Shown here piece after piece: positions 1,340 to 55,396 of a DNA stretch of 64,000 nucleotides; position 1 is the first letter of the stretch, and each line of letters begins with the position of its first letter. Origin of the DNA: a virus. Location of the stretch: positions 16,717-80,716 of the IMG/VR virus record IMGVR_UViG_3300032235_000808; one strand, given 5' to 3'. Both the position numbers and the translations under genes were made by a program. The notes beneath the pieces are model-generated. The model had not been told where the DNA came from. It searched no databases and was given only the letters and a program-made list of their open reading frames with translations.

Positions 1340-2875
1340 TTATGAAACTTTTTTAATCATTTCAATTAGTTTTTTATTATCTATAGATGTTTTCAAAGCC
1401 TGTTCCACATTATACTTGTATGTTTCCATCCACTTTAAAAAATCACCGTTTAAATTATAGATTTCGTTTTCTTTTTTAAATATTTCTTTCGATATTAAAT
1501 TATTGTCAAGTCCAACACCAACTTCAATATAACTAATATTTGGAAATGTTTCAACAATATTTCTATCAAAAATATTTGGTGTACGTTCTTTCCAAGTTTT
1601 TAATTTTTTATCTAATGTCTTTGGTATAATTGTACTTTTCTTATAATCTTTCCAAAATGGTGTATCGTCTCTATCCGTTAAATAATGGTAATATAAGAAA
1701 TCTAAAACACTATCATTAAAGTTATTGAAATACTCATTATACTCCTCTCTAAATAAATCGGAAGGATATGTAAAATTCATTTTGGTTAGATATGTTAATT
1801 GGGATATTGCAATCCATATTGATGTGGCTTCAATTGGTTCTGTAAATCCGGCACTTAAACCGACAGATATACAATTTTTAATCCACACATCTTTAAATCT
1901 ACCAGCATTAAAATCAATTACTTTATTAATCTTAATTTCTTTACCAACCATTTCTTCCACCTCTTTCTTAGCTTCATCCACATTGATATAATTCTTATCA
2001 AAAATATATCCACAACCATATCTACTTTGTAATGGTATTTTCCACATCCAACCATATTTCATGGCAATTGCATCTGTGTGTGGTTGTATGATGTCATCTT
2101 CTTTATCTAAGAAGAATGGTATTGCACAATTAACTTTAAGTTGATTCTCATATGATATCCACTCACTCTCATAATGTTTACCGATGATTAATCTTTTAAA
2201 CCCGCTACAATCAAAAACAAAATCAATATTAGATACTGTTATGTCCTCAACTAAATTAATTGAACATATATTTCCGTCATTATCATTTTGAATATCTTTG
2301 ACTGTACCTTCAATTCTTTTTATACCTCTTTGTTCTGCTTTTTTTCTTAAAAATTTTGCCATTAAAGTAGCATCAAAATGATATGAATAACTTACTACCT
2401 TTTTGAATGTGTCATCGATATATAGATAAGGTGACCTATTATTATATGATAATAAATGGGTGATTAATCTGTCATCTAATTTTTCATCGTTTGCTATTAA
2501 ATTTGTAATAGTATAATTTGTTCCATTAGGTGTTAAACCAACTGATGTGACATTTCCTGATTTAACAATTTCCTCAAAATTTAATGATTTATCATCAACA
2601 CCAAAACCATGCATGTATTTTTCACCATTACCTCTCCAATTCTCAAAATTTATACCTAATTTAAATGTGGCATCGGTCTCCTTTATAATTTCTTCTTCAC
2701 TAATTCCTAAATTATAAAGAAAATATGGAAAAATGGGTACTGAACCTTCTCCAGCACCTAAAATACCAATTTCTTCACTTTCAATAAGTGTTATGTTATA
2801 ATCAGGTGCAATTTTGTTTAAATAGAGTGCGGTTAACCAACCAGCGGTACCGCCACCAACAATAACTAATTTCAT
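1340..2875 (-). CDS. Tryptophan halogenase-family flavoprotein
   Basis: This 511-residue protein belongs to the FAD-dependent tryptophan halogenase family (PrnA/RebH-like). The FAD-binding GGGTAGW motif is at residues 7-13 and the family signature WMWKIP at 276-281. By alignment from memory with RebH, the catalytic lysine corresponds to Lys72 in ATFKLGINFENW, and the glutamate that follows EPI is Glu349. The serine next to that glutamate in RebH is Ala350 here. Family members use reduced flavin, oxygen and halide to make HOCl-like species that halogenate aromatic substrates. Phage members are known, for example VirX1 of a cyanophage, which prefers iodide. Here the gene sits among tail-fibre genes, so the substrate could be a virion protein or a host molecule; this is unknown. 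Confidence 0.9.
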   Translation of the reverse strand: MKLVIVGGGTAGWLTALYLNKIAPDYNITLIESEEIGILGAGEGSVPIFPYFLYNLGISEEEIIKETDATFKLGINFENWRGNGEKYMHGFGVDDKSLNFEEIVKSGNVTSVGLTPNGTNYTITNLIANDEKLDDRLITHLLSYNNRSPYLYIDDTFKKVVSYSYHFDATLMAKFLRKKAEQRGIKRIEGTVKDIQNDNDGNICSINLVEDITVSNIDFVFDCSGFKRLIIGKHYESEWISYENQLKVNCAIPFFLDKEDDIIQPHTDAIAMKYGWMWKIPLQSRYGCGYIFDKNYINVDEAKKEVEEMVGKEIKINKVIDFNAGRFKDVWIKNCISVGLSAGFTEPIEATSIWIAISQLTYLTKMNFTYPSDLFREEYNEYFNNFNDSVLDFLYYHYLTDRDDTPFWKDYKKSTIIPKTLDKKLKTWKERTPNIFDRNIVETFPNISYIEVGVGLDNNLISKEIFKKENEIYNLNGDFLKWMETYKYNVEQALKTSIDNKKLIEMIKKVS

Positions 2876-3270: not shown

Positions 3271-6200
3271 TTAGTCTAAACCTACGTGTTTTTTAATTTT
3301 ATTTACTTCTTCAGTTAATTCTTTAATTGCCTCAATTAACAATGGTACAATCTTATCATATTTTACTGTTAAATAATTTTCGCCAGATTTTGAGGTTGTA
3401 ACACCATCTTCCGATGTGTCAAAATCAAATGGTGCTAACGATACTACTTCAGGTAAAATTGATTGTACTTCTTGTGCTGAAACACCGACTTGTAATTTAG
3501 CATCGTTATATCCAAAAGTTTTCGCTAAATCATTATTAACATAGTAAAAACCATTTAATTTGTTAACCTTATCTAACGGATTTTCAATTGGGCCTAAATT
3601 TTCTTTTAATCTTTCATCAGAATAATATGCTGTAATATCACTTGTAGCGGCTATTTGATTTGGAACATAAAAGGCTTTACCATTGTAGACTCTCACCCAA
3701 CTTGTATCTTGCATAAAAATACCACCATCATATGACCCATTGTACCAACCTGTAGCACCTTGACTTCTAAACCAGTTTGGTGCGTAAACCGTATCAAATG
3801 TTGGACCATTGTTGGTATTAACATATTGGTTCATTGCAGACGCATAAACGTTTGATGTACCTGAAGGTCCTGTTGGTCCTTGAGGACCTGTGTTACCATT
3901 TGTACCATTAGTACCTGAAGGTCCTTGTCTACCTTGTGGACCTACGGGACCTATTGGTCCTATTGGTCCTTGTGGACCTGCTCCACCAACGTTACCTGTT
4001 GGACCTGTATTTCCTTGATTACCCTGTGGGCCAGTTGGACCCGTGTTACCTATATTACCCTGTGGACCTACGGGACCTATTGGACCTTGTGGTCCTGTGA
4101 CACCATTGTTACCTGCAGGTCCTGTGTTACCTTGATTACCTTGAGGACCAGTTGGTCCTGTGTTACCTATATTACCCTGAGGACCTATTGGTCCTTGTGG
4201 TCCGGTTGCCCCCACATTTCCTTGGTTACCCTGAGGACCTGTAGCACCATTGTTACCATTATTACCCGCATTACCTTGGGGTCCTGTTGGTCCTGTATTT
4301 CCTTGATTACCTTGAGGTCCCGTGGCACCATTGTTACCATTGTTACCTGCAGGTCCTGTGTTACCTTGGTTACCTTGAGGTCCCGTGGCACCATTGTTAC
4401 CATTATTACCCGATGGTCCTTGTCTACCTTGAGGGCCTACGGGACCGATTGGTCCAATATTACCTTGTGGTCCTATATTACCCTGAGGGCCAGTTGGACC
4501 AGTATTTCCTTGATTACCCTGAGGTCCTGTGGCACCATTGTTACCATTGTTACCTGCAGGTCCTGTATTTCCTTGGTTACCCTGAGGACCTGTTGGACCA
4601 GTATTTCCTTGATTACCCTGAGCACCATTATTACCATTATTACCATTGATACCTGATGGTCCTTGTCTACCTTGAGGGCCTACGGGACCAATTGGTCCAA
4701 TATTACCTTGAGGACCTGTCGCACCAGTATTTCCTTGATTACCTTGAGGGCCTGTTGGTCCTGTATTTCCTTGATTACCTTGAGGACCCGTTGCGCCAGT
4801 ATTTCCTTGGTTACCTTGTGGACCTGTGGCACCTGTATTTCCTTGATTACCTTGGGGACCAGTTGGGCCTGTGTTACCTTGATTTCCTTGTGGTCCTGTT
4901 GGTCCTGTTGGTCCTGTATTTCCTTGATTACCTTGAGCACCGTTGTTACCATTATTACCTGATGGTCCTTGTCTACCTTGTGGACCGACAGGTCCGATTG
5001 GGCCAGTATTTCCCTGATTACCTTGTGGACCTGTCGGTCCTGTATTTCCTTGGTTACCTTGAGGACCTGTTGGTCCAACATTACCTTGAGAACCCACGTT
5101 ACCCTGAGCACCAGTATTTCCTTGATTTCCTTGTGGACCTAAGTTACCAAATGCACCTTGATTTCCTTGCGGACCTGTTAGTCCAGTATTTCCTTGGTTA
5201 CCCTGAGGACCTGTTGGTCCGACATTACCTTGCGGACCTGTGGCTCCTTGATTACCTTGTGTACCCACATTACCTTGAGGACCAAGATTACCAAACGCAC
5301 CTTGATTTCCTTGCGGGCCTGTTGGTCCTGTATTTCCTTGGTTACCTTGAGGACCTGTTGGTCCAACATTACCTTGAGGTCCACTATTTCCTTGATTACC
5401 TTGCGGTCCTGATGGACCTGTGTTTCCTATTGGACCTGTGTTACCCTGATTACCTTGAGGACCTGTTGGTCCTGTGTTACCCTGATTACCTTGTGGTCCA
5501 TTTGGACCTATATTTCCTTGATTTCCTTGAGGTCCTATAACCCCCTGAGCACCCGTTGGTCCTTGTGGTCCTGTTACGTTTGATGAACCACCCGCGGGAC
5601 CTGTTGCACCTTGATTACCTTGATATCCTTGTGGACCTATTGGTCCTGTACCACCTTGGTTACCTTGAAAACCTTGAGGACCGACGTTACCATTTAAACC
5701 GTTAGTACCTGTAGGTCCAGTATTTCCTTGATTACCCTGAGGACCTGTTGGTCCCGTTGTTCCCGCATTTCCTTGATTACCTTGTGGACCAGTTGGTCCC
5801 ACATTACCTTGAGGACCAGTAGCACCTTGATTTCCTTGAGTTCCCGCAGGTCCTGTGTTACCTTGATTACCCTGAGGTCCGGTTAAACCAGTATTACCTT
5901 GATTACCTTGTGGACCAGTTGGTCCAACATTACCTTGTGGGCCGACATTTCCTTGATTTCCTTGTGGTCCTGTTAAACCAGTATTTCCTTGATTACCTTG
6001 AGCACCTGTTGCACCCACATTACCCTGATTACCTTGTGGGCCTGTTGGTCCCACGTTACCTTGGGGTCCTGTTGGTCCTTGTGGACCACCCACTAATAAA
6101 TTTGTGGCAACACCTGCAGCAGTTTCAGTTAAATCAATATACGCACCTCGAGCGGAACCTCCTTGTTCAAAAATTCTTATTTTATTTTGGTAAGAGTCGA

Positions 6201-6390
6201 TTGTTATACCACTACCTGTAAGTGTGGTATTTGTCTCAGGTTTACCTAATAATAATTCTCCACCTTCGTCACCCCCAATTGCGTCTAGTGTTAATTTTCC
6301 ACCAGCACCACCACCAACCGATAAAGAACCGGTAATTACAGAATTATTTTTAGCAATGACACCATTGCGTGCCACAAATTCATTTGCCAT
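3271..6390 (-). CDS. Collagen-like tail fibre with C-terminal S74 chaperone domain
   Basis: A 1039-residue fibre. Residues ~1-100 form a head containing a Gly-rich beta segment. Residues ~100-843 are Gly-X-Y triplets dominated by [13 protein letters not shown] units, with [13 protein letters not shown] blocks at intervals, so a triple helix of roughly 245 triplets is expected. Residues ~860-920 are a globular tip segment. Residues 924-1039 are an intramolecular chaperone of the peptidase S74 type: [11 protein letters not shown] carries the Ser924/Lys929 pair, spaced by five as in the endosialidase chaperone dyad, and the domain ends in a helical coil. Known members trimerise the fibre and then cleave themselves off just before the serine. 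The gene is probably a homotrimeric receptor-binding fibre. Confidence 0.93.
3860..6090 (-). repeat. Collagen Gly-X-Y repeat tract
   Basis: Within the fibre gene the DNA is a long run of 9-base units (three residues) arranged in higher-order blocks of about 12-18 residues. Block order differs along the tract and several blocks are near-identical, which fits expansion and contraction by recombination. Open plus-strand frames across it are compositional shadows. Confidence 0.9.
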
Positions 6391-7415: not shown

Positions 7416-8111
7416 TTATCTTAATCCAAATCTTGATTTTAATGCGTTATAGTTTTGTTGTACTTCTGTTGCAGATAGTGTTTTGTTGTAAACTTTTGCA
7501 GATGCCATTGAGCCAGAAAACCAACCACTGCCGAAGTTACTTCGACCCATATTTAAACTAGCCGAAGTTACTAAAGGTGATAGGGCCATTGACCCCGCAC
7601 CCATTAATACACCATTCACATAAACACTTGAGGTTTGGTTAGTATAGTTAAAAGTATTAACAAAATGATACCATGAACCTGTAGTAATTGTTCCTCCACC
7701 GATGTCAGTATATGTTGGTGTCCCATAAAATGAAGCGTAAATGTTATTTCCTCTAACAACTATTGAATATGTACCTCCATTAATTGCGGATTGTGCAGAA
7801 TTAATTAAGGTTCCATTTGAACCTGTGGTAAAATTTGCCCAAAATTCGGTAGTAAAACTACTACTAATTAAACTAAAATTTGAATTGGGTAAAGTGTTCA
7901 ATGTAACATAATCATTTGTTCCATCAAATACTATTGTACCTCCTTTAGTTGAGTTATAGGTTGGTCCATTGGTCAATGTCCCATTATTTACCTTCCCACT
8001 AACGTCTTTCCATGTTAAACTACCACTGATATAACTATTTTGGTCACTAGCATCTAAATCTAACACTAAACTTGAATCTCTTACAATATTTGGTCCTGCA
8101 GATATTCCCAT
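7416..8111 (-). CDS. LamG/concanavalin A-like lectin-domain protein 2
   Basis: A 231-residue paralogue of its two neighbours, with the same layout. It has an N-terminal SSLVLDLDASDQNSYISG strand, then LTWKDVSGKVNNGTLTNGPTY, a central variable jelly-roll and a C-terminal KVYNKTLSATEVQQNYNALKSRF helix. The middle of the protein differs strongly from its neighbours while both ends are conserved, which fits divergence in glycan specificity. Six bases separate it from the next paralogue. Confidence 0.85.
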   Translation of the reverse strand: MGISAGPNIVRDSSLVLDLDASDQNSYISGSLTWKDVSGKVNNGTLTNGPTYNSTKGGTIVFDGTNDYVTLNTLPNSNFSLISSSFTTEFWANFTTGSNGTLINSAQSAINGGTYSIVVRGNNIYASFYGTPTYTDIGGGTITTGSWYHFVNTFNYTNQTSSVYVNGVLMGAGSMALSPLVTSASLNMGRSNFGSGWFSGSMASAKVYNKTLSATEVQQNYNALKSRFGLR

Positions 8112-27551: not shown

Positions 27552-28799
27552 TTACTGAGTTTTTTTGTTATACCCGTACATCTTTTTCATCTTTTCAATT
27601 TCCTCATTGATAAGATTTGTTTTTAATACTTCAGACTCATTAACCTCTTTTGTAGGTGCTGGGTCTTTTTCATACATTGGAGCCTTCTCTTGTTCTTTTT
27701 CTTTTTTATTTGCTCTGTCTGCTAATTTTTTTCCTGTGTCAGTTGGAATAACGTTTCCAGCGTCGTGTGAATTACCCATTGTAGAATCACCATCTAATGC
27801 TTTCTTTAATCTTGCTTTAAACTCTTCTGATGGTTCGCTATCATAATCTAAATCCAATAATGTACCACCTCTAAAGTTACTTACAAATTCATCTTCTTTT
27901 TCATCATTGTTAACCACAACCTTTTCTCCCTTTTTATTTGCTTCAGGGAATTCAGGATTACTTCCACCCGGTATTTCTAACTGACCTTTGATTTTTTTCT
28001 TTACATCATTTAAGTTAGCATCGTTTTCTTTACCACTTGCAGTACGTACTTTCTTTTGAGTTTCGATACCCGGTACCGCAGCTTCACTAACCATTTTACT
28101 AATTAATGCAACTAACTCAGATTCAGTTAAACGTAAAGTTTTCTTTTTAGATTCCATCATATTACCTGAACACTCTGAGCAAATTCCTTCCTCATTCATC
28201 ATACCACCACACTCATTACAAGTACCTGACATTTCATTCAAATCTTCTTCCATATAGTTACTACCACACTCATAACATTCTTCCTCTTCTTCTTTGGTAT
28301 CTTGTTTTTGACCTTTAAGGATTTTAAAATCTTGTGCGTCAATCTTACCATTATGGTTTTTATCTAATTTCTTTTGTCCTCCGATTAATTCTTCTTTAGT
28401 ATCTGCTTTATTACCATTAAGAATTTTAAAATCTTCACCATCAATTTTACCATTGTGATTCTTATCTAATTTTTTTTGACCACCTTTTAATTCTTCTTTC
28501 ATATCGTTGTTTTCTGTTTCTTCTAATTCTTCACCCATTTTATCTAATTTTTCAATCATATCACCATGAGATTCATAATTTGCTTTCTCAATGATAAATT
28601 GTTTTCCTGGGTGTTCTTTTGCCAATTTATCAACATGTTCTTCAGCTTCTTCTTGTGTGTCACAAGTAACAACAGGTTCACCTTCACATGTTACATGATA
28701 TTTTTCCATCATACCACCGGTAGATTCTTTAAGAATACTTTTCTTAATTTCATCAAAAACGATGCTTTCCATGATTGCGTTTAATTCTTCAACTTTCAT
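27552..28799 (-). CDS. EF-hand and zinc-ribbon protein, possible head/core protein
   Basis: A 415-residue acidic protein. Residues 112-123 and 146-157 are two near-identical EF-hand-like calcium loops (DKNHNGKID). Residues 175-210 hold three CxxC pairs (C175/C178, C194/C197, C207/C210) that look like a zinc ribbon. A TESELVALISKMVSEA segment at ~225-240 resembles short helices found in prohead core or head proteins of T4-like phages. The C-terminal 170 residues are polar and low-complexity. The duplicated calcium loops with flanking KEELKGGQKKL arose by internal duplication. It lies one base after the ParB-like gene. A scaffolding or virion role is inferred. Confidence 0.7.
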   Translation of the reverse strand: MKVEELNAIMESIVFDEIKKSILKESTGGMMEKYHVTCEGEPVVTCDTQEEAEEHVDKLAKEHPGKQFIIEKANYESHGDMIEKLDKMGEELEETENNDMKEELKGGQKKLDKNHNGKIDGEDFKILNGNKADTKEELIGGQKKLDKNHNGKIDAQDFKILKGQKQDTKEEEEECYECGSNYMEEDLNEMSGTCNECGGMMNEEGICSECSGNMMESKKKTLRLTESELVALISKMVSEAAVPGIETQKKVRTASGKENDANLNDVKKKIKGQLEIPGGSNPEFPEANKKGEKVVVNNDEKEDEFVSNFRGGTLLDLDYDSEPSEEFKARLKKALDGDSTMGNSHDAGNVIPTDTGKKLADRANKKEKEQEKAPMYEKDPAPTKEVNESEVLKTNLINEEIEKMKKMYGYNKKTQ

Positions 28800-49240: not shown

Positions 49241-49831
49241 TTAAATTGTATCGCACTCAATAAATTCAAGTTCTACCTTTTTATTGATGGTTGGTGATGT
49301 TGTGGTAATATTAAAGGTAAAATTGTATTCACCTTTACCCAATATTATCTTGTCGTTACCTGAAGTTGTTGTTGATACGGTAATACTTGATGGGATTGGG
49401 GTTGGTGCGTCATCCACCGATGTCACTGTTAATGTACTTGATACGTTAACACTATCAAGGTCACCATTTGTTACAGTTAATTTTAGTACAGGACTACCAT
49501 TTGCACCAATTAAATCCGAAACATAACTTGTATAACAAACATCGGTAGATTGAAATGTAATAAAAGAATCACCACATTTTATTTGATAAAATGTAAAACC
49601 ATTAACTAATTGTTGATGTGTTAAATCTGATTTTAAAATAGTATATTCTGGACCAATATTTAAAACGTCAACCTTACCTGAACTTGTAACACCTGTCGTG
49701 CTCAACAATGTGGCAGTATTTCCAGAGTTAAAGGTAAATCCTGAAGAATCATAATGTTCCAAAGTCGCAACAAATGGACCAATAACATTATGGGGGATAT
49801 TTTTATATTTTGCTTTTATATTAACTGCCAT
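49241..49831 (-). CDS. Beta-sandwich virion protein
   Basis: A 196-residue protein (MAVNIKAKYKNIPHNVIGPFVATLEHYDSSG) with two likely Ig-like beta sheets, an N-terminal one and a C-terminal one (PIPSSITVSTTTSGNDKIILGKGEYNFTFNITTTS). It follows the giant adhesin gene by 12 bases. It may cap or attach that adhesin. No catalytic motif is seen. Confidence 0.65.
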   Translation of the reverse strand: MAVNIKAKYKNIPHNVIGPFVATLEHYDSSGFTFNSGNTATLLSTTGVTSSGKVDVLNIGPEYTILKSDLTHQQLVNGFTFYQIKCGDSFITFQSTDVCYTSYVSDLIGANGSPVLKLTVTNGDLDSVNVSSTLTVTSVDDAPTPIPSSITVSTTTSGNDKIILGKGEYNFTFNITTTSPTINKKVELEFIECDTI

Positions 49832-49843
49832 ATCTTATAAATA

Positions 49844-52800
49844 TTACATTGTAAATATGTCTCCATATGTTTGACTACAACCGTTATTATCGGTAACTTT
49901 AACATAATAGTATCCAGGTGCAATACTATTAAATGTCACATTTGATGCGTCATATAATGTGTCAACCAAACTACCTCCGCCAATTTCATATGGTGCCGCA
50001 TAATCTCTATATAATTCAAAAGTTTTAGAACCCGAAGCTCCACCTGAAACAGACGCGTATATTTGGTCAAATGCAGTTTTTTGTGCAAATAATCCAAGAG
50101 CTGTTGGTTGTGTTACTGTTACGTTAAAAGTGACCTCTCTAAGAGCTGAATCTCTGACGTAGACAATATAATTACCTGCAGGTAAGTTAGAATAATTAGT
50201 TGACGATGTCCAATTTGAGTATGTTGTATAAACGCTATTTAATTTTGTTTGATAAGTTCCACCAAAACCACCGCTTATACCAGTTACCACTATCGAACCA
50301 TTTGACCCACCGTTACAAGATACGTTTGTTACTGTATTTGTTGCCACAATTGCTGCCGGTGTTCTTGTCATAGTTGGTGTTGGCGTTGGCGTTTTTGTTG
50401 ATGTACTTGTTGGTGTTTGTGATGGGGTAACATAACAATTAATTGTTACAAAATAAGTCGTTGATACGTTACCAAAAGTATCTCTTGCTTTTAAATAATA
50501 AAGTCCATCATTTAAACTACTAAATAGGTAAGGCGAACTATTGTATGAAAACCAAGACCCGCCATCATCAATTGTTAATTCATACGTTCCACCATTTCCA
50601 CCTGTTACTGAATTAACTGAAATTATACCAGATGTATTTGTTGTTCCAGCACAACTTGTTGTATATGATACGTTGATTGCTGGATATGTTGATGTATCAT
50701 TTATAGTTACAACACTTGATGTTGCAACAATACTTCCGCTAACACTACCTGTTCTAACGTACACAAAGAATGTTTCAGAACCTTCGGTTACTTGGTCCGC
50801 AGTAATTGAAACACTAAAACTACCCGTGTTACTATTAATTGTAAAGCTACCACTTGTTGAACCAAAATCAATAGACGATGATGAACCGTTAGTGTTTATT
50901 GTCCAATAAAGTGTAGTTCCATTTCCAACACGAGAAGTATTAACGTTAAATGTTAATGAAGAACCCTCATTAATATTTGAAAATGCCGGTGCCACAGAGT
51001 ATGTTGGTAACGGTGTTGATGTTGGTGTAATCGATGGTGTTTTTGTTTGTGTGGGTGTAATTGTACTAGTTGGGGTGTTACTTGGTGTTTTTGTTTGTGT
51101 TGGCGTAATTGTATTAGTTGGTGTGATAGTATTTGTAGGAGTGTTACTTGGCGTCTTTGTTTGTGTAGGTGTAATTGTTTGTGTAGGCGTAATTGTATTA
51201 GTAGGAGTGTTAGATGGTGTCTTTGTTTGTGTAGGCGTAATTGTTTGTGTAGGCGTAATTGTATTAGTAGGAGTGTTAGATGGTGTCTTTGTTTGTGTAG
51301 GCGTAATTGTATTAGTTGGCGTTACAGTATTAGTAGGAGTATTAGACGGTGTCTTTGTTTGTGTTGGTGTTATTGTATTAGTTGGCGTTACAGTATTAGT
51401 AGGAGTATTAGATGGTGTTTTTGTTTGTGTAGGTGTAATTGTTTGTGTTGGAGTCACACTTGGTGTTGGTGTATTAGTTGGTGTTATAGTATTAGTCGGT
51501 GTTATAGTGTTAGTTGGAGTTACACTTGGTGTAATTGTTTGTGTTGGAGTAATTGTTTGTGTAGGTGTTGTGGTTGGTGTAGGTGAAATACATGGTGCAG
51601 TTGCGGTAATTTGAGCATTACCACTAACATTAGTGATTGTTAATACATCACCACTACCATCCCCTTTTCTAATATAGAATGTAGAAACTCCTGTAGTACC
51701 TAAAGTTGTGTTTAATTCTGCTATAGTCCATGTGTCAGTTCCATTTGGTGATTGATATAAAACTTCATTTAATTCCAATGGTTGGTCAGCATCATAAATT
51801 AAAATTTGTGTACTTGGTGAATAACAAATAGAATAAGAATCGGTTGAGATATAATAATATACTCCGTCTAATGGATTAGATGTAGATGGTGTTACTGTAG
51901 CGGTTGGGGTAACTGTACTTGTTGGTGTAATAGTATTAGTTGGTGTGATAGTATTTGTTGGCGTGTTACTTGGTGTTTTTGTTTGTGTTGGTGTTATAGT
52001 TTTTGTTGGTGTAATTGTTTGTGTAGGCGTAATTGTATTAGTTGGGGTAATAGTATTAGTTGGTGTAATAGTATTTGTAGGTGTCTGTGTTGGTGTTGGT
52101 GTTGTAGTATTAGTAGGTGTGGTTGTATTTGTAGGTGTAACTGTTGATGTTGGAGTATTGGTTGGGTATGGTGTAGTTGCAACAGTAGATTCCGCAGTAA
52201 TAACAAACGATTCACCCTCATTAAGTGTTAAACCAGTTGCATTTGGTAAGTCGGTAGGATTATATGGATTAACTGCGCTATATTCATAAACTGTAGTTAA
52301 TGTGTTACCACTATCCGCAACTTGTACTTTTAAGTATAATTGTGAGCTATCTGTGTTTCCTGTCCATCCAATATCAAATGTTTCACCAACAAAGTCCGTA
52401 ATACTATATTTAAACGCTCCCGTTGTTGAGTTGAACTTAAATATGTCAGTTGCATTAGCAAAAATTGCCAACGTATTTGCATTTGTGTCTACTGTAACCG
52501 AACCTTGTAATGCACTACATTGAGGGAATTGCTCGTAGAACGACATATTGTTACTGAAAACAGAACCAAGATTTGTTGCTATTGTATTACCCGATATATC
52601 ATATAAATCAAGATAAATTGTTGTATGTGTTGTTAATGGATTTTCTGCGTCATAATTATCGGTATCTGGTCTAAACTCAAAATATGCGTTTTCTGGGTCA
52701 TCGGCATTAAACAAGTAAAGTACATCATCGTAGCTATTTACACAACTACCAGAGTAGTACGAACCTAAAGGTATTGGGAACTCGTTGTCAATATTAATAT

Positions 52801-55396
52801 CACCTCTAATAGTTGTTCCACCACTTGGGTCTAAGTATCCAACTACACAATTAACTGACAATCCAATGTATGCCGCAACATCTATAGTTGTACATCCCGT
52901 ATTAACTATGTTAAATGTACTACCACTATATGTTACAGTGGCACAGTTTTCAAATGTTCCGTATTCTGTTGGTGTTACATAATATGTAAATGTTGCAAAT
53001 TGTTTTGTTAAGTTATATGCGGAATATAGTGAACCATAAGGACCCGGGTCAGAAATTGGTACATATTCAGTTGTCAATAGACTAAATGGTGGGTGGGTTG
53101 AATCATCACAATTATTTGGTAAAAAACTATTACCCGCATATAATCCAAGTCTAGAATTTAATTTAATAGTAAAATTATCTGTTGTTTGGTTCCATTCAAG
53201 AATTTCATAACTTGAATCCAACATAAATGAAGAATTGGTATATACTAAACCATTTGGACCAGTGGAATTCGATAATTCCAAGAAATCAGGTAAGGTATCT
53301 TTAATTATAACATATGAACTTGGTGGTAATGCTCTATCGGATGATATTGAAAGTTCAAAACGAGCAGAAAAATCTTTAATTGGTAAATCTATTAATGTTT
53401 TAGTAATTGTAAGTTCCGGTGTATCAATAGTATAAGTTAATGTATCAGTTGTTGTCACATTACCATACTTAACAGTTGCAACATTATTGTATTCACCAAA
53501 AATTTTATGTCTGACAGTAAAACCTAAAGTGTAATTATCGAGATTAGAAATTCTTTGGTGTAAAGCATATTCTATTGTATTTCCTGTACAAGTAATACCG
53601 GCAACTGTATTATTTCCACCACCATTTGTACCATCACAACCTTGATACCAATATGATACGTCGGTACCAAATATTCCTAAAAATTCTTGACCGATTAACT
53701 CGTCATTATATTTTATGTAATTAAACTCGATTAACTCATATATGTCAGTATCAATAATATTTTTTAATATTACATCACAATATGTTTGTCCTGTTGAACC
53801 TGCAGCTAACTTTACGTCAACTTCAATAATATTTTCAGTATTATAATCATACGCTCTTCTTTCAATTAAAGTATCAACAACCGAATACGGTAATGTTGAA
53901 CCTGAACAGAAGTCAATTAAATGTGAAATAGGTACAACAGTTTGTGTAATATCAAATGTAAGTGGTGTTAAGTCGGATGTATGTGAACCACTATAATTTG
54001 TACCTAAATTAGTTGCGGTAGCTGTTAATGTTACACTATCCCATGTTTGTGGTTTTACAACAAATCCAAGAGTATAAGTGTGTCCATCACCAATTGGTTT
54101 ACGTAGTGTATATCTTATGGTGTTAAGTGTACAACCACCGGTTGTTCGTCTTCCATCACAACCATTTGTCTCATCATAATAATCATCAACAGGATAATCG
54201 ATAAAATTTCCATCATATAAAATATATTGGAATGGGTCTCTATCATTTGGTAAAACATAACCACTTGGTATTGTTAATGTTAGAGTTGTGTTACCAACAG
54301 TACATGATTCATTACCGCTAATGACAACTTCCATTATACTTTCTTTACAATATTCTAATGTTGACGAAGTATAACCCGTTACCAAATCATTATCATAATC
54401 ATAGTAAAAATATTTGTCAGTTGGGTAAACAGTAGTAGTTAAGGCCGGCTGGTCGAATGTTAACGTATCCGAATCCGAAACTATTTGTGACCCGTACTGT
54501 GCGGTACCTGTAACTGTAATTGCTCCATATGTATTTGGTAACACATTAAATCCTACTGTGTAATAATGACCTCTACCAATTTCTTTATATAGTTCAAGTT
54601 TTATAGTACCATACGTACATCCAAAACTTGTACCACTTATAATACCGTTACAACCATCATACCAATCGGTTACCGGTGGTCCAAAAATTCCACCACCAAC
54701 AGCTTGTCCATCATAGTAAACATAATTATACCCCCCATGTGTATATCCACTTGGTATTGGAATTTCAATATATGTTGTACCAACAGTGTAACCTTTAGTT
54801 GTTGTTATGTCAAATGTATACATAAATTGTTCACCACAGTAATTTACATTTGAGGTGTCAAAATTAACCGCCAATACAGGTACTTGAGTGGGTGTCATTG
54901 TAGGTGTTAATGTCTTGGTTGGTGTTACTGTTGGTGTAATAGTTTTGGTTGGTGTAATAGTGTTTGTTGGTGTAATTGTATTAGTTGGGGTGATAGTTGG
55001 TGTAATAGTGTTTGTTGGTGTAATTGATGGGGTAATGGTATTTGTTGGTGTGTTAGTTGGAGTATCGGTAATAGTTGGTGTAATTGATGGTGTAACCGTA
55101 TTTGATGGCGTGATGGATGGTGTGATAGTAAATGTGGGCGTTGTGGTTGGCGTAGGGGTATTAAATAACAATGTTTCGGAACTATTACAACCTATATTAA
55201 ATATTATAATTGATGTTGTATTATCAGGTACGGAAATACTAATTCCCGTTGAAACCGTTTCATAATTTAAATTTTCTGCAGGTGTATTTGATGAAATTAA
55301 AAGGGCGATGTTATTTGACCCAATAGAATCATAATAAACGGTATACGGTCCGACTGATGCTCCTGAAGTTAATTTTATGTTATAATATAATGCCAT
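49844..55396 (-). CDS. Giant Thr-Pro-repeat adhesin with Calx-beta-like and SprB-like domains
   Basis: An 1850-residue chain. A head at 1-75 is followed by a TPTNTITPT stalk at ~75-172. Next come three related beta domains of ~150 residues (EIPIPSGYTHGGYNYVYYDG type), a fourth beta region to ~1070, a second stalk at ~1072-1172, a small domain, and a third stalk at ~1265-1465. A Calx-beta-like domain lies at ~1465-1568 (NINEGSSLTFNVNTS ... ADQVTEGSETFFVYV). Two repeats at ~1580-1850 include NVSCNGGSNGSIVVTGISGG, the SprB repeat signature of Bacteroidota gliding adhesins. It is probably an extended surface-binding fibre of the virion. Confidence 0.85.
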   Translation of the reverse strand: MALYYNIKLTSGASVGPYTVYYDSIGSNNIALLISSNTPAENLNYETVSTGISISVPDNTTSIIIFNIGCNSSETLLFNTPTPTTTPTFTITPSITPSNTVTPSITPTITDTPTNTPTNTITPSITPTNTITPTITPTNTITPTNTITPTKTITPTVTPTKTLTPTMTPTQVPVLAVNFDTSNVNYCGEQFMYTFDITTTKGYTVGTTYIEIPIPSGYTHGGYNYVYYDGQAVGGGIFGPPVTDWYDGCNGIISGTSFGCTYGTIKLELYKEIGRGHYYTVGFNVLPNTYGAITVTGTAQYGSQIVSDSDTLTFDQPALTTTVYPTDKYFYYDYDNDLVTGYTSSTLEYCKESIMEVVISGNESCTVGNTTLTLTIPSGYVLPNDRDPFQYILYDGNFIDYPVDDYYDETNGCDGRRTTGGCTLNTIRYTLRKPIGDGHTYTLGFVVKPQTWDSVTLTATATNLGTNYSGSHTSDLTPLTFDITQTVVPISHLIDFCSGSTLPYSVVDTLIERRAYDYNTENIIEVDVKLAAGSTGQTYCDVILKNIIDTDIYELIEFNYIKYNDELIGQEFLGIFGTDVSYWYQGCDGTNGGGNNTVAGITCTGNTIEYALHQRISNLDNYTLGFTVRHKIFGEYNNVATVKYGNVTTTDTLTYTIDTPELTITKTLIDLPIKDFSARFELSISSDRALPPSSYVIIKDTLPDFLELSNSTGPNGLVYTNSSFMLDSSYEILEWNQTTDNFTIKLNSRLGLYAGNSFLPNNCDDSTHPPFSLLTTEYVPISDPGPYGSLYSAYNLTKQFATFTYYVTPTEYGTFENCATVTYSGSTFNIVNTGCTTIDVAAYIGLSVNCVVGYLDPSGGTTIRGDINIDNEFPIPLGSYYSGSCVNSYDDVLYLFNADDPENAYFEFRPDTDNYDAENPLTTHTTIYLDLYDISGNTIATNLGSVFSNNMSFYEQFPQCSALQGSVTVDTNANTLAIFANATDIFKFNSTTGAFKYSITDFVGETFDIGWTGNTDSSQLYLKVQVADSGNTLTTVYEYSAVNPYNPTDLPNATGLTLNEGESFVITAESTVATTPYPTNTPTSTVTPTNTTTPTNTTTPTPTQTPTNTITPTNTITPTNTITPTQTITPTKTITPTQTKTPSNTPTNTITPTNTITPTSTVTPTATVTPSTSNPLDGVYYYISTDSYSICYSPSTQILIYDADQPLELNEVLYQSPNGTDTWTIAELNTTLGTTGVSTFYIRKGDGSGDVLTITNVSGNAQITATAPCISPTPTTTPTQTITPTQTITPSVTPTNTITPTNTITPTNTPTPSVTPTQTITPTQTKTPSNTPTNTVTPTNTITPTQTKTPSNTPTNTVTPTNTITPTQTKTPSNTPTNTITPTQTITPTQTKTPSNTPTNTITPTQTITPTQTKTPSNTPTNTITPTNTITPTQTKTPSNTPTSTITPTQTKTPSITPTSTPLPTYSVAPAFSNINEGSSLTFNVNTSRVGNGTTLYWTINTNGSSSSIDFGSTSGSFTINSNTGSFSVSITADQVTEGSETFFVYVRTGSVSGSIVATSSVVTINDTSTYPAINVSYTTSCAGTTNTSGIISVNSVTGGNGGTYELTIDDGGSWFSYNSSPYLFSSLNDGLYYLKARDTFGNVSTTYFVTINCYVTPSQTPTSTSTKTPTPTPTMTRTPAAIVATNTVTNVSCNGGSNGSIVVTGISGGFGGTYQTKLNSVYTTYSNWTSSTNYSNLPAGNYIVYVRDSALREVTFNVTVTQPTALGLFAQKTAFDQIYASVSGGASGSKTFELYRDYAAPYEIGGGSLVDTLYDASNVTFNSIAPGYYYVKVTDNNGCSQTYGDIFTM
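51000..51590 (-). repeat. TPTNTITPT / TPTQTITPT stalk repeats (long block)
   Basis: About 30 near-identical 18-base units in one block, with a higher-order 54-72 base period (TQTKTPSNTPTNTVTPTNTITP) repeated several times. Companion blocks of the same gene lie at ~51880-52180 and ~54880-55170. Confidence 0.9.

What the first reader, a model, noticed from the sequence alone, without database searches (positions are those of the whole stretch)
49844..51000. Phage tail adhesin carries SprB-type repeats, a signature of the host gliding machinery
The C-terminal ~270 residues contain NVSCNGGSNGSIVVTGISGG and a matching second repeat with a NNGCSQTYG end, the pattern of SprB repeats in Bacteroidota gliding adhesins, next to a Calx-beta-like domain. 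A phage carrying this fold at the tip of a fibre may bind the same polysaccharides as SprB, or mimic and compete with the host adhesin.
Basis: partly seen in the sequence, partly recalled or inferred. Interest (0 to 1): 0.6.

Follow-up and report, generated by a model that had tools for sequence, protein, structure and literature searches.

The report
SprB repeats as phage fibre stalk
A long virion-type protein of an uncultured phage really does end in the repeat unit known from the gliding adhesins of Bacteroidota, but comparison with related phages suggests the repeats are a constant stalk whose short end piece is swapped between phages, rather than a copy of the host's sugar-binding adhesin.

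Summary
The 1,850-aa protein at 49844-55396(-) contains a genuine SprB repeat (PF13573, 31.4 bits against a cut-off of 28). A repeat model built only from Bacteroidota proteins finds three units in its last ~270 residues, all above 2,000 shuffles. Calx-beta stays below threshold.

The same gene in a large family of uncultured phage contigs carries arrays of about 2-14 SprB-type repeats. In 22 distinct relatives the array is followed by a 78-143-aa tip from ten unrelated families. Two near-identical phages (98-99% DNA identity on both sides) differ only in that tip, and a second pair shows the same at about 92%. The array therefore looks like a stalk and the tip like the receptor-binding part. 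The window and four relatives lack a tip, end at the cap, and uniquely share a 196-aa gene next door.

Hosts are probably Bacteroidota: almost no Shine-Dalgarno motifs, and the only bacterial relatives found are Bacteroidota. No T9SS signal is present, so the protein is not a gliding adhesin. Binding, virion location and host are untested.

The parts
49844..55396 (-). Modular 1,850-aa virion-type adhesin gene; C-terminus towards 49844
   Evidence: Open frame; orthologues at the same place in relatives
55172..55396 (-). Conserved N-terminal domain, residues 1-75 (type A backbone)
   Evidence: 35-41% identical to N-termini in L009, L011, L014, L017, L020
54883..55130 (-). TP-rich linker 1 (TPTNTITPTNT-type repeats)
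   Evidence: Tandem repeats
51903..52179 (-). TP-rich linker 2
   Evidence: Tandem repeats
51598..51902 (-). Small domain (NPLDGVYYYISTDSYSICYSP...) shared nearly unchanged with L002 and found twice in diverged form in L003, between TP linkers
   Evidence: Sequences printed
51036..51597 (-). TP-rich linker 3
   Evidence: Tandem repeats, 66-bp unit
50693..50965 (-). Calx-beta-like domain, residues ~1478-1568, below Pfam threshold
   Evidence: 17.3 bits against cut-off 27; 42% identical to Synechococcus phage Sf-FP1 virion protein
50450..50662 (-).
   Evidence: Bacterial repeat profile: 9.6 bits in the full protein, 12.2 on the C-terminal 384 aa where the best of 2,000 shuffles gave 10.5
50351..50428 (-). 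Short TP-rich linker before the SprB unit
   Evidence: Sequence
50099..50344 (-). Full SprB repeat, residues 1685-1766 (Pfam core at 50252-50341)
   Evidence: PF13573 31.4 bits; predicted beta-sandwich, model mean pLDDT 90
49847..50098 (-). Phage-type end-cap domain, residues 1767-1850; last ~30 residues SprB-like; protein ends here without a tip
   Evidence: Orthologous to the last repeat of phage arrays, E 4e-38; relatives L001-L004 likewise end here
49241..49831 (-). 196-aa neighbour gene (g196), found only beside tip-less adhesins
   Evidence: HMM hits only in L001-L004 and re-fetches of the same contigs; nothing else above 15 bits
48646..49161 (-). 171-aa gene, homologous to the C-terminal half of a ~376-aa gene in simpler relatives
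   Evidence: 55-56% over about residues 218-388 of the genes in L034, L036, L044
55402..59769 (-). 1,455-aa TP-rich gene; its first ~220 aa are homologous to the N-terminal half of that ~376-aa gene
   Evidence: 34-41% in L034, L036, L044, L055, L056

Best explanation
The protein is a long modular fibre adhesin of a large tailed phage that probably infects Bacteroidota. A conserved N-terminal domain is the likely virion-proximal end; threonine-proline linkers join interchangeable beta domains. SprB-type repeats form the Ig/FnIII-like distal stalk and end in a phage-specific cap. In most relatives a short, swappable tip beyond the cap would make the host contact. In the window's lineage the tip is missing, so the cap itself or a separate protein (candidate: the adjacent 196-aa product) would be the contact surface. 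Shown: the repeats, the arrays, the swaps, the absent tip, the gene co-occurrence. Inferred: virion location, orientation, host and binding.
For: SprB identity; arrays in relatives up to E 7.7e-38 over nine Pfam units in L113. Family-wide: PF13573 at E<=0.01 in 26 of 50 records chosen by an unrelated neighbour gene. Tip beyond the array in 22 distinct relatives, ten unrelated families. L106 and L107: 98.1% and 98.9% DNA identity over 3.4 and 5.7 kb on the two sides, with only the last ~265 bp of the gene unrelated; L013 and L081: 89-92% on both sides, tips unrelated. Fold: two beta-sandwiches, mean pLDDT 90; matches include FnIII tandems, T5 central fibre pb4 (TM 0.54), lambda tail tip and Aureispira GhpA. 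PHROG 26672, 'virion structural protein', matches the L020 array at E 3.4e-14. g196 only beside tip-less adhesins. Host hints.
Against: The window has one full repeat and two partial ones, not a long array, and no tip, so the stalk reading rests on relatives with 31-40% identity over the module. Within its own subgroup the last two domains are the most conserved part (64-75%) while the upstream domains differ, which would also fit an anchoring or conserved binding role. Neighbouring genes match no Pfam, PHROG or PDB tail protein. Swaps are seen in metagenome assemblies.
Confidence: 0.6

Rival explanations
1. One reading: the SprB unit and its cap are the receptor-binding tip and recognise the same surface polysaccharides as host SprB-type adhesins.
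For: In the window and L001-L004 the protein ends at the cap, and the module is kept at 64-75% identity on two different backbones. Adhesion by phage Ig-like proteins is documented for gut phages (PMC13370021).
Against: In 22 tip-bearing relatives the array is constant and the part beyond it changes. The fold is generic. No paper found here shows that the SprB repeat itself binds sugar; the lectin function cited in PMC11205867 is that of RemA.
Confidence: 0.2
2. The C-terminal SprB-cap module is the virion-anchoring or assembly end, and the variable upstream domains point outwards.
For: It is shared by the window, L001 and L002, whose N-terminal regions are unrelated; it lies next to the conserved gene cassette.
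Against: In tip-bearing relatives the sequence past the array is the hypervariable part; the N-terminal domain is shared by the window and the type A relatives.
Confidence: 0.12
3. Molecular mimicry or decoy: the phage displays SprB-like repeats to compete with, or ride on, the host gliding machinery.
For: A profile built from Bacteroidota repeats recognises the phage repeats.
Against: No T9SS sorting domain, which F. johnsoniae SprB uses for secretion and propulsion (title of a reference listed in PMC7073777); similarity to bacterial repeats is only ~34%.
Confidence: 0.04
4. Chance or low-complexity artefact of a repetitive protein.
For: Full-length hmmscan missed SprB; the protein is rich in T, S and G.
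Against: All three units exceed every one of 2,000 shuffles; orthologous arrays score up to E 3.3e-40 with Pfam.
Confidence: 0.01

Closest known systems
SprB repeat (Pfam PF13573) of T9SS-secreted adhesins of Bacteroidota
   Same: Full ~80-residue repeat unit with CNGG..NGSI, AG.Y.V.V.D and TQP motifs; a profile of bacterial repeats recognises it
   Different: No T9SS sorting domain, phage gene neighbourhood, one full unit in the window, arrays ended by a phage-specific cap
A0A6J5LD72, 'SprB repeat' protein of an uncultured Caudovirales phage (BFVD/UniProt)
   Same: Best viral structural match, E 6.4e-11; shows SprB in phages was already annotated automatically
   Different: Not compared in detail; multi-domain TM-score only 0.22
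T5 central fibre pb4 and lambda tail-tip FnIII domains
   Same: Ig/FnIII-like beta-sandwiches in tail fibres; pb4 TM-score 0.54
   Different: 13-16% sequence identity over the aligned columns; different domain families
Modular Ig-like adhesins of gut phages (BACON, PKD; PMC13370021) and tentaclins (PMC10743442)
   Same: Modular Ig-like phage adhesins; those of PMC13370021 largely in phages predicted to infect Bacteroidota
   Different: Domain types reported are BACON/PKD, or an N-terminal C-type lectin followed by Ig domains; SprB is not mentioned in PMC13370021
Aureispira grappling hook protein GhpA
   Same: Ig-like tandem domains of a bacterial protein; among the better PDB matches
   Different: 15-17% identity; a bacterial protein

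Membership tests
SprB repeat (PF13573) | Score above the curated cut-off | tested here: met
   31.4 bits against 28 in the six-frame search; 28.0 on the 198-aa C-terminus; missed in the full-length scan
SprB repeat (PF13573) | Tandem copies in one protein | tested here: inconclusive
   Window: one full and two partial units; relatives: clearly tandem, nine Pfam units in L113
SprB gliding adhesin / T9SS substrate | C-terminal T9SS sorting domain (TIGR04183 or TIGR04131) | tested here: not met
   Best 16.8 bits against 23, none; positive control L103 44.6 bits against 35
SprB gliding adhesin / T9SS substrate | Encoded in a bacterial genome with secretion and gliding genes | tested here: not met
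   80.7-kb virus record with phage-type genes around it
Phage tail fibre / receptor-binding protein | Gene among tail or baseplate genes | tested here: inconclusive
   Neighbour gene conserved in 75 viral loci, but neighbours match no named tail family; one short N-terminal similarity (43% over 46 aa) to a Microcystis phage Mel-JY01 protein
Phage tail fibre / receptor-binding protein | Hypervariable distal part on a conserved backbone | tested here: met
   Tip exchange in relatives; the window itself has no tip
Phage tail fibre / receptor-binding protein | Present in the virion and binds the host | not testable with these tools
   Needs mass spectrometry and binding assays
Calx-beta (PF03160) | Score above the curated cut-off | tested here: not met
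   15.3-17.3 bits against 27

The most novel reading that the evidence does not exclude
This locus is a dedicated fibre-diversification site: adhesin genes sit between the two halves of what is one gene in simpler relatives, and near-identical SprB arrays and TP linkers act as recombination handles through which phages swap 80-140-aa tips, also between neighbouring fibre genes of one genome (the L115 tip reappears in the next gene of L113). SprB repeats would then be a shared building block of Bacteroidota adhesins and of the phages that hunt them.
Probability: 0.35. Interest if true: 0.65.

Novelty: new variant of a known kind. Interest (0 to 1): 0.5.

Why it matters
If right, a host-type adhesin repeat has become a standard stalk of receptor-binding fibres in a widespread uncultured phage group. 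Natural pairs such as L106/L107, which over the compared ~9 kb differ almost only in one ~85-residue tip, make tip-to-host assignment directly testable. It also gives a handle on hosts for phages known only from metagenomes.

Tried and rejected
Relatives of the C-terminal module in bacterial genomes: none. Relatives of the window's module in isolated phages: only its Calx-like part matched. Bacteroidota -33/-7 promoters: not above chance, so no host evidence there. tRNAs in the window: none. PDB sequence searches with the module or arrays: only weak hits of no clear meaning. Naming the neighbours as baseplate proteins through Pfam, PHROGs or PDB failed. The first structure model of 384 aa was poor in its first half (pTM 0.40), so the last 166 aa were modelled alone. 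A profile of the tip-bearing relatives' repeats alone did not report the window protein, so that link rests on the bacterial profile, on Pfam and on the cap. My first thought, that the module is the constant anchoring end, was dropped to a rival once the tip swaps appeared.

Full report
Observation. The finding lies in a single minus-strand gene, 49844-55396, coding 1,850 aa. The window is bases 16717-80716 of an 80,716-bp virus record. The gene alternates TP-rich linkers with other domains, beta-rich where modelled. Pfam SprB scores 28.0 bits on the last 198 aa and 31.4 bits in a six-frame search (cut-off 28). A profile made only from repeats of two Bacteroidota proteins finds three units in the window protein. 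On the C-terminal 384 aa they score 37.6, 16.2 and 12.2 bits, against a best of 10.5 in 2,000 shuffles. The first ~80-aa domain of the final pair matches bacterial repeats over its full length. The last domain is a diverged cap: its final ~30 residues are SprB-like, and its orthologue ends the arrays of related phages. Calx-beta is below threshold, though the same stretch is 42% identical to a Synechococcus phage virion structural protein.

Relatives. The module alone finds four viral contigs, L001-L004, 64-75% identical over it. Their upstream parts differ: L003 and L004 share the window's N-terminal domain, while L001 and L002 have another backbone with cadherin repeats. Using the neighbouring 800-aa gene as an anchor independent of SprB gave 75 viral loci. 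In 26 of 50 such records PF13573 hits at E<=0.01, in 15 over cut-off. Array-based searching gave 42 viral loci and confirmed more arrays. The largest, in L113 and L115, have 13-14 matched units with the bacterial profile.

Tips. In 22 distinct adhesins the array is followed by 78-143 residues falling into ten unrelated clusters. L106 and L107 are 98-99% identical in DNA on both sides. The unrelated stretch is L106 4442-4711 versus L107 3388-3646: it starts at the array's end and stops just after the stop codon. L013 and L081 show the same pattern at about 92% identity. The L115 tip type also occurs at the end of a neighbouring 192-200-aa ORF in L113 and in L115 itself. Tips therefore move as units. 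These are metagenome assemblies, so assembly error is possible, but two independent pairs agree.

The window's lineage. Window and L001-L004 end at the cap with no tip. Precisely these loci carry the 196-aa gene next door. A separate protein completing the fibre is a natural guess, not shown.

Locus structure. In seven loci examined without this adhesin (L034, L036, L044, L047, L055, L056, L063), a single ~318-388-aa gene joins the N-terminal part of the window's 1,455-aa gene to the window's 171-aa gene. The adhesin genes thus sit between two halves of what is one gene elsewhere. Whether this is insertion or fusion was not polarised.

Structure. The last 166 aa are modelled as two beta-sandwiches with mean pLDDT 90. 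Matches are Ig/FnIII tandems, including T5 central fibre pb4 (TM 0.54), lambda tail-tip proteins and Aureispira GhpA. This is a common fold and says little about specificity. The best viral match of the longer model is an uncultured Caudovirales protein already labelled 'SprB repeat', so SprB in phages is in databases, although no paper describing it was found here.

Host. Shine-Dalgarno-like motifs precede 1 of 40 window genes, against 2/29 in Tenacibaculum phage PTm1, 9/29 in Synechococcus phage S-H38 and 4/10 in Microcystis phage Mel-JY01. That Bacteroidota genes mostly lack such motifs is my own knowledge, not tested here. The only bacterial relatives of the arrays found are a Chitinophagales MAG and Xanthocytophaga flavus, ~34% identical; the first carries a T9SS type B sorting domain. 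About 20% of 99 sampled genomes of that phylum have SprB hits and none of 14 control genomes do. This favours a Bacteroidota host but does not prove it; some replication genes are closest to a Microcystis phage and megaphages.

Interpretation. Best reading: a fibre adhesin whose SprB repeats serve as stalk, with the host contact made by exchangeable tips in relatives and by the cap or a partner in the window. Competing readings, SprB as the binding tip and SprB as the anchoring end, remain open. Binding, virion location and host are inferences.

Noticed in passing
window 1340-2875 (-): Tryptophan halogenase gene (PF04820, E 8e-112); best phage match Pelagibacter phage HTVC008M at 46%.
   Followed up: partly
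window 3271-6390 (-): Collagen-like fibre ending in a Peptidase_S74 intramolecular chaperone domain: a second, classical tail-fibre-type protein.
   Followed up: no
L034 7925-9052, L044 7886-9049 and five other loci: One ~376-aa gene corresponds to the N-terminus of the window's 1,455-aa gene plus its 171-aa gene; fibre genes occupy the split in the window's group.
   Followed up: partly
L113 8024-8599, L115 8037-8636: Neighbouring small ORFs end in the tip type found on the L115 adhesin: tips shared between adjacent genes.
   Followed up: partly
phages record LR756502.1, ~516325-517458: A 642-kb uncultured phage genome with six places similar to the SprB array.
   Followed up: no
window 27552-28799 (-): EF-hand / dockerin-like motifs in a 415-aa phage protein.
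   Followed up: no
window 7416-8111 (-): Laminin-G/concanavalin-like lectin domain protein (PF13385, E 8e-22), another possible glycan-binding virion protein.
   Followed up: no
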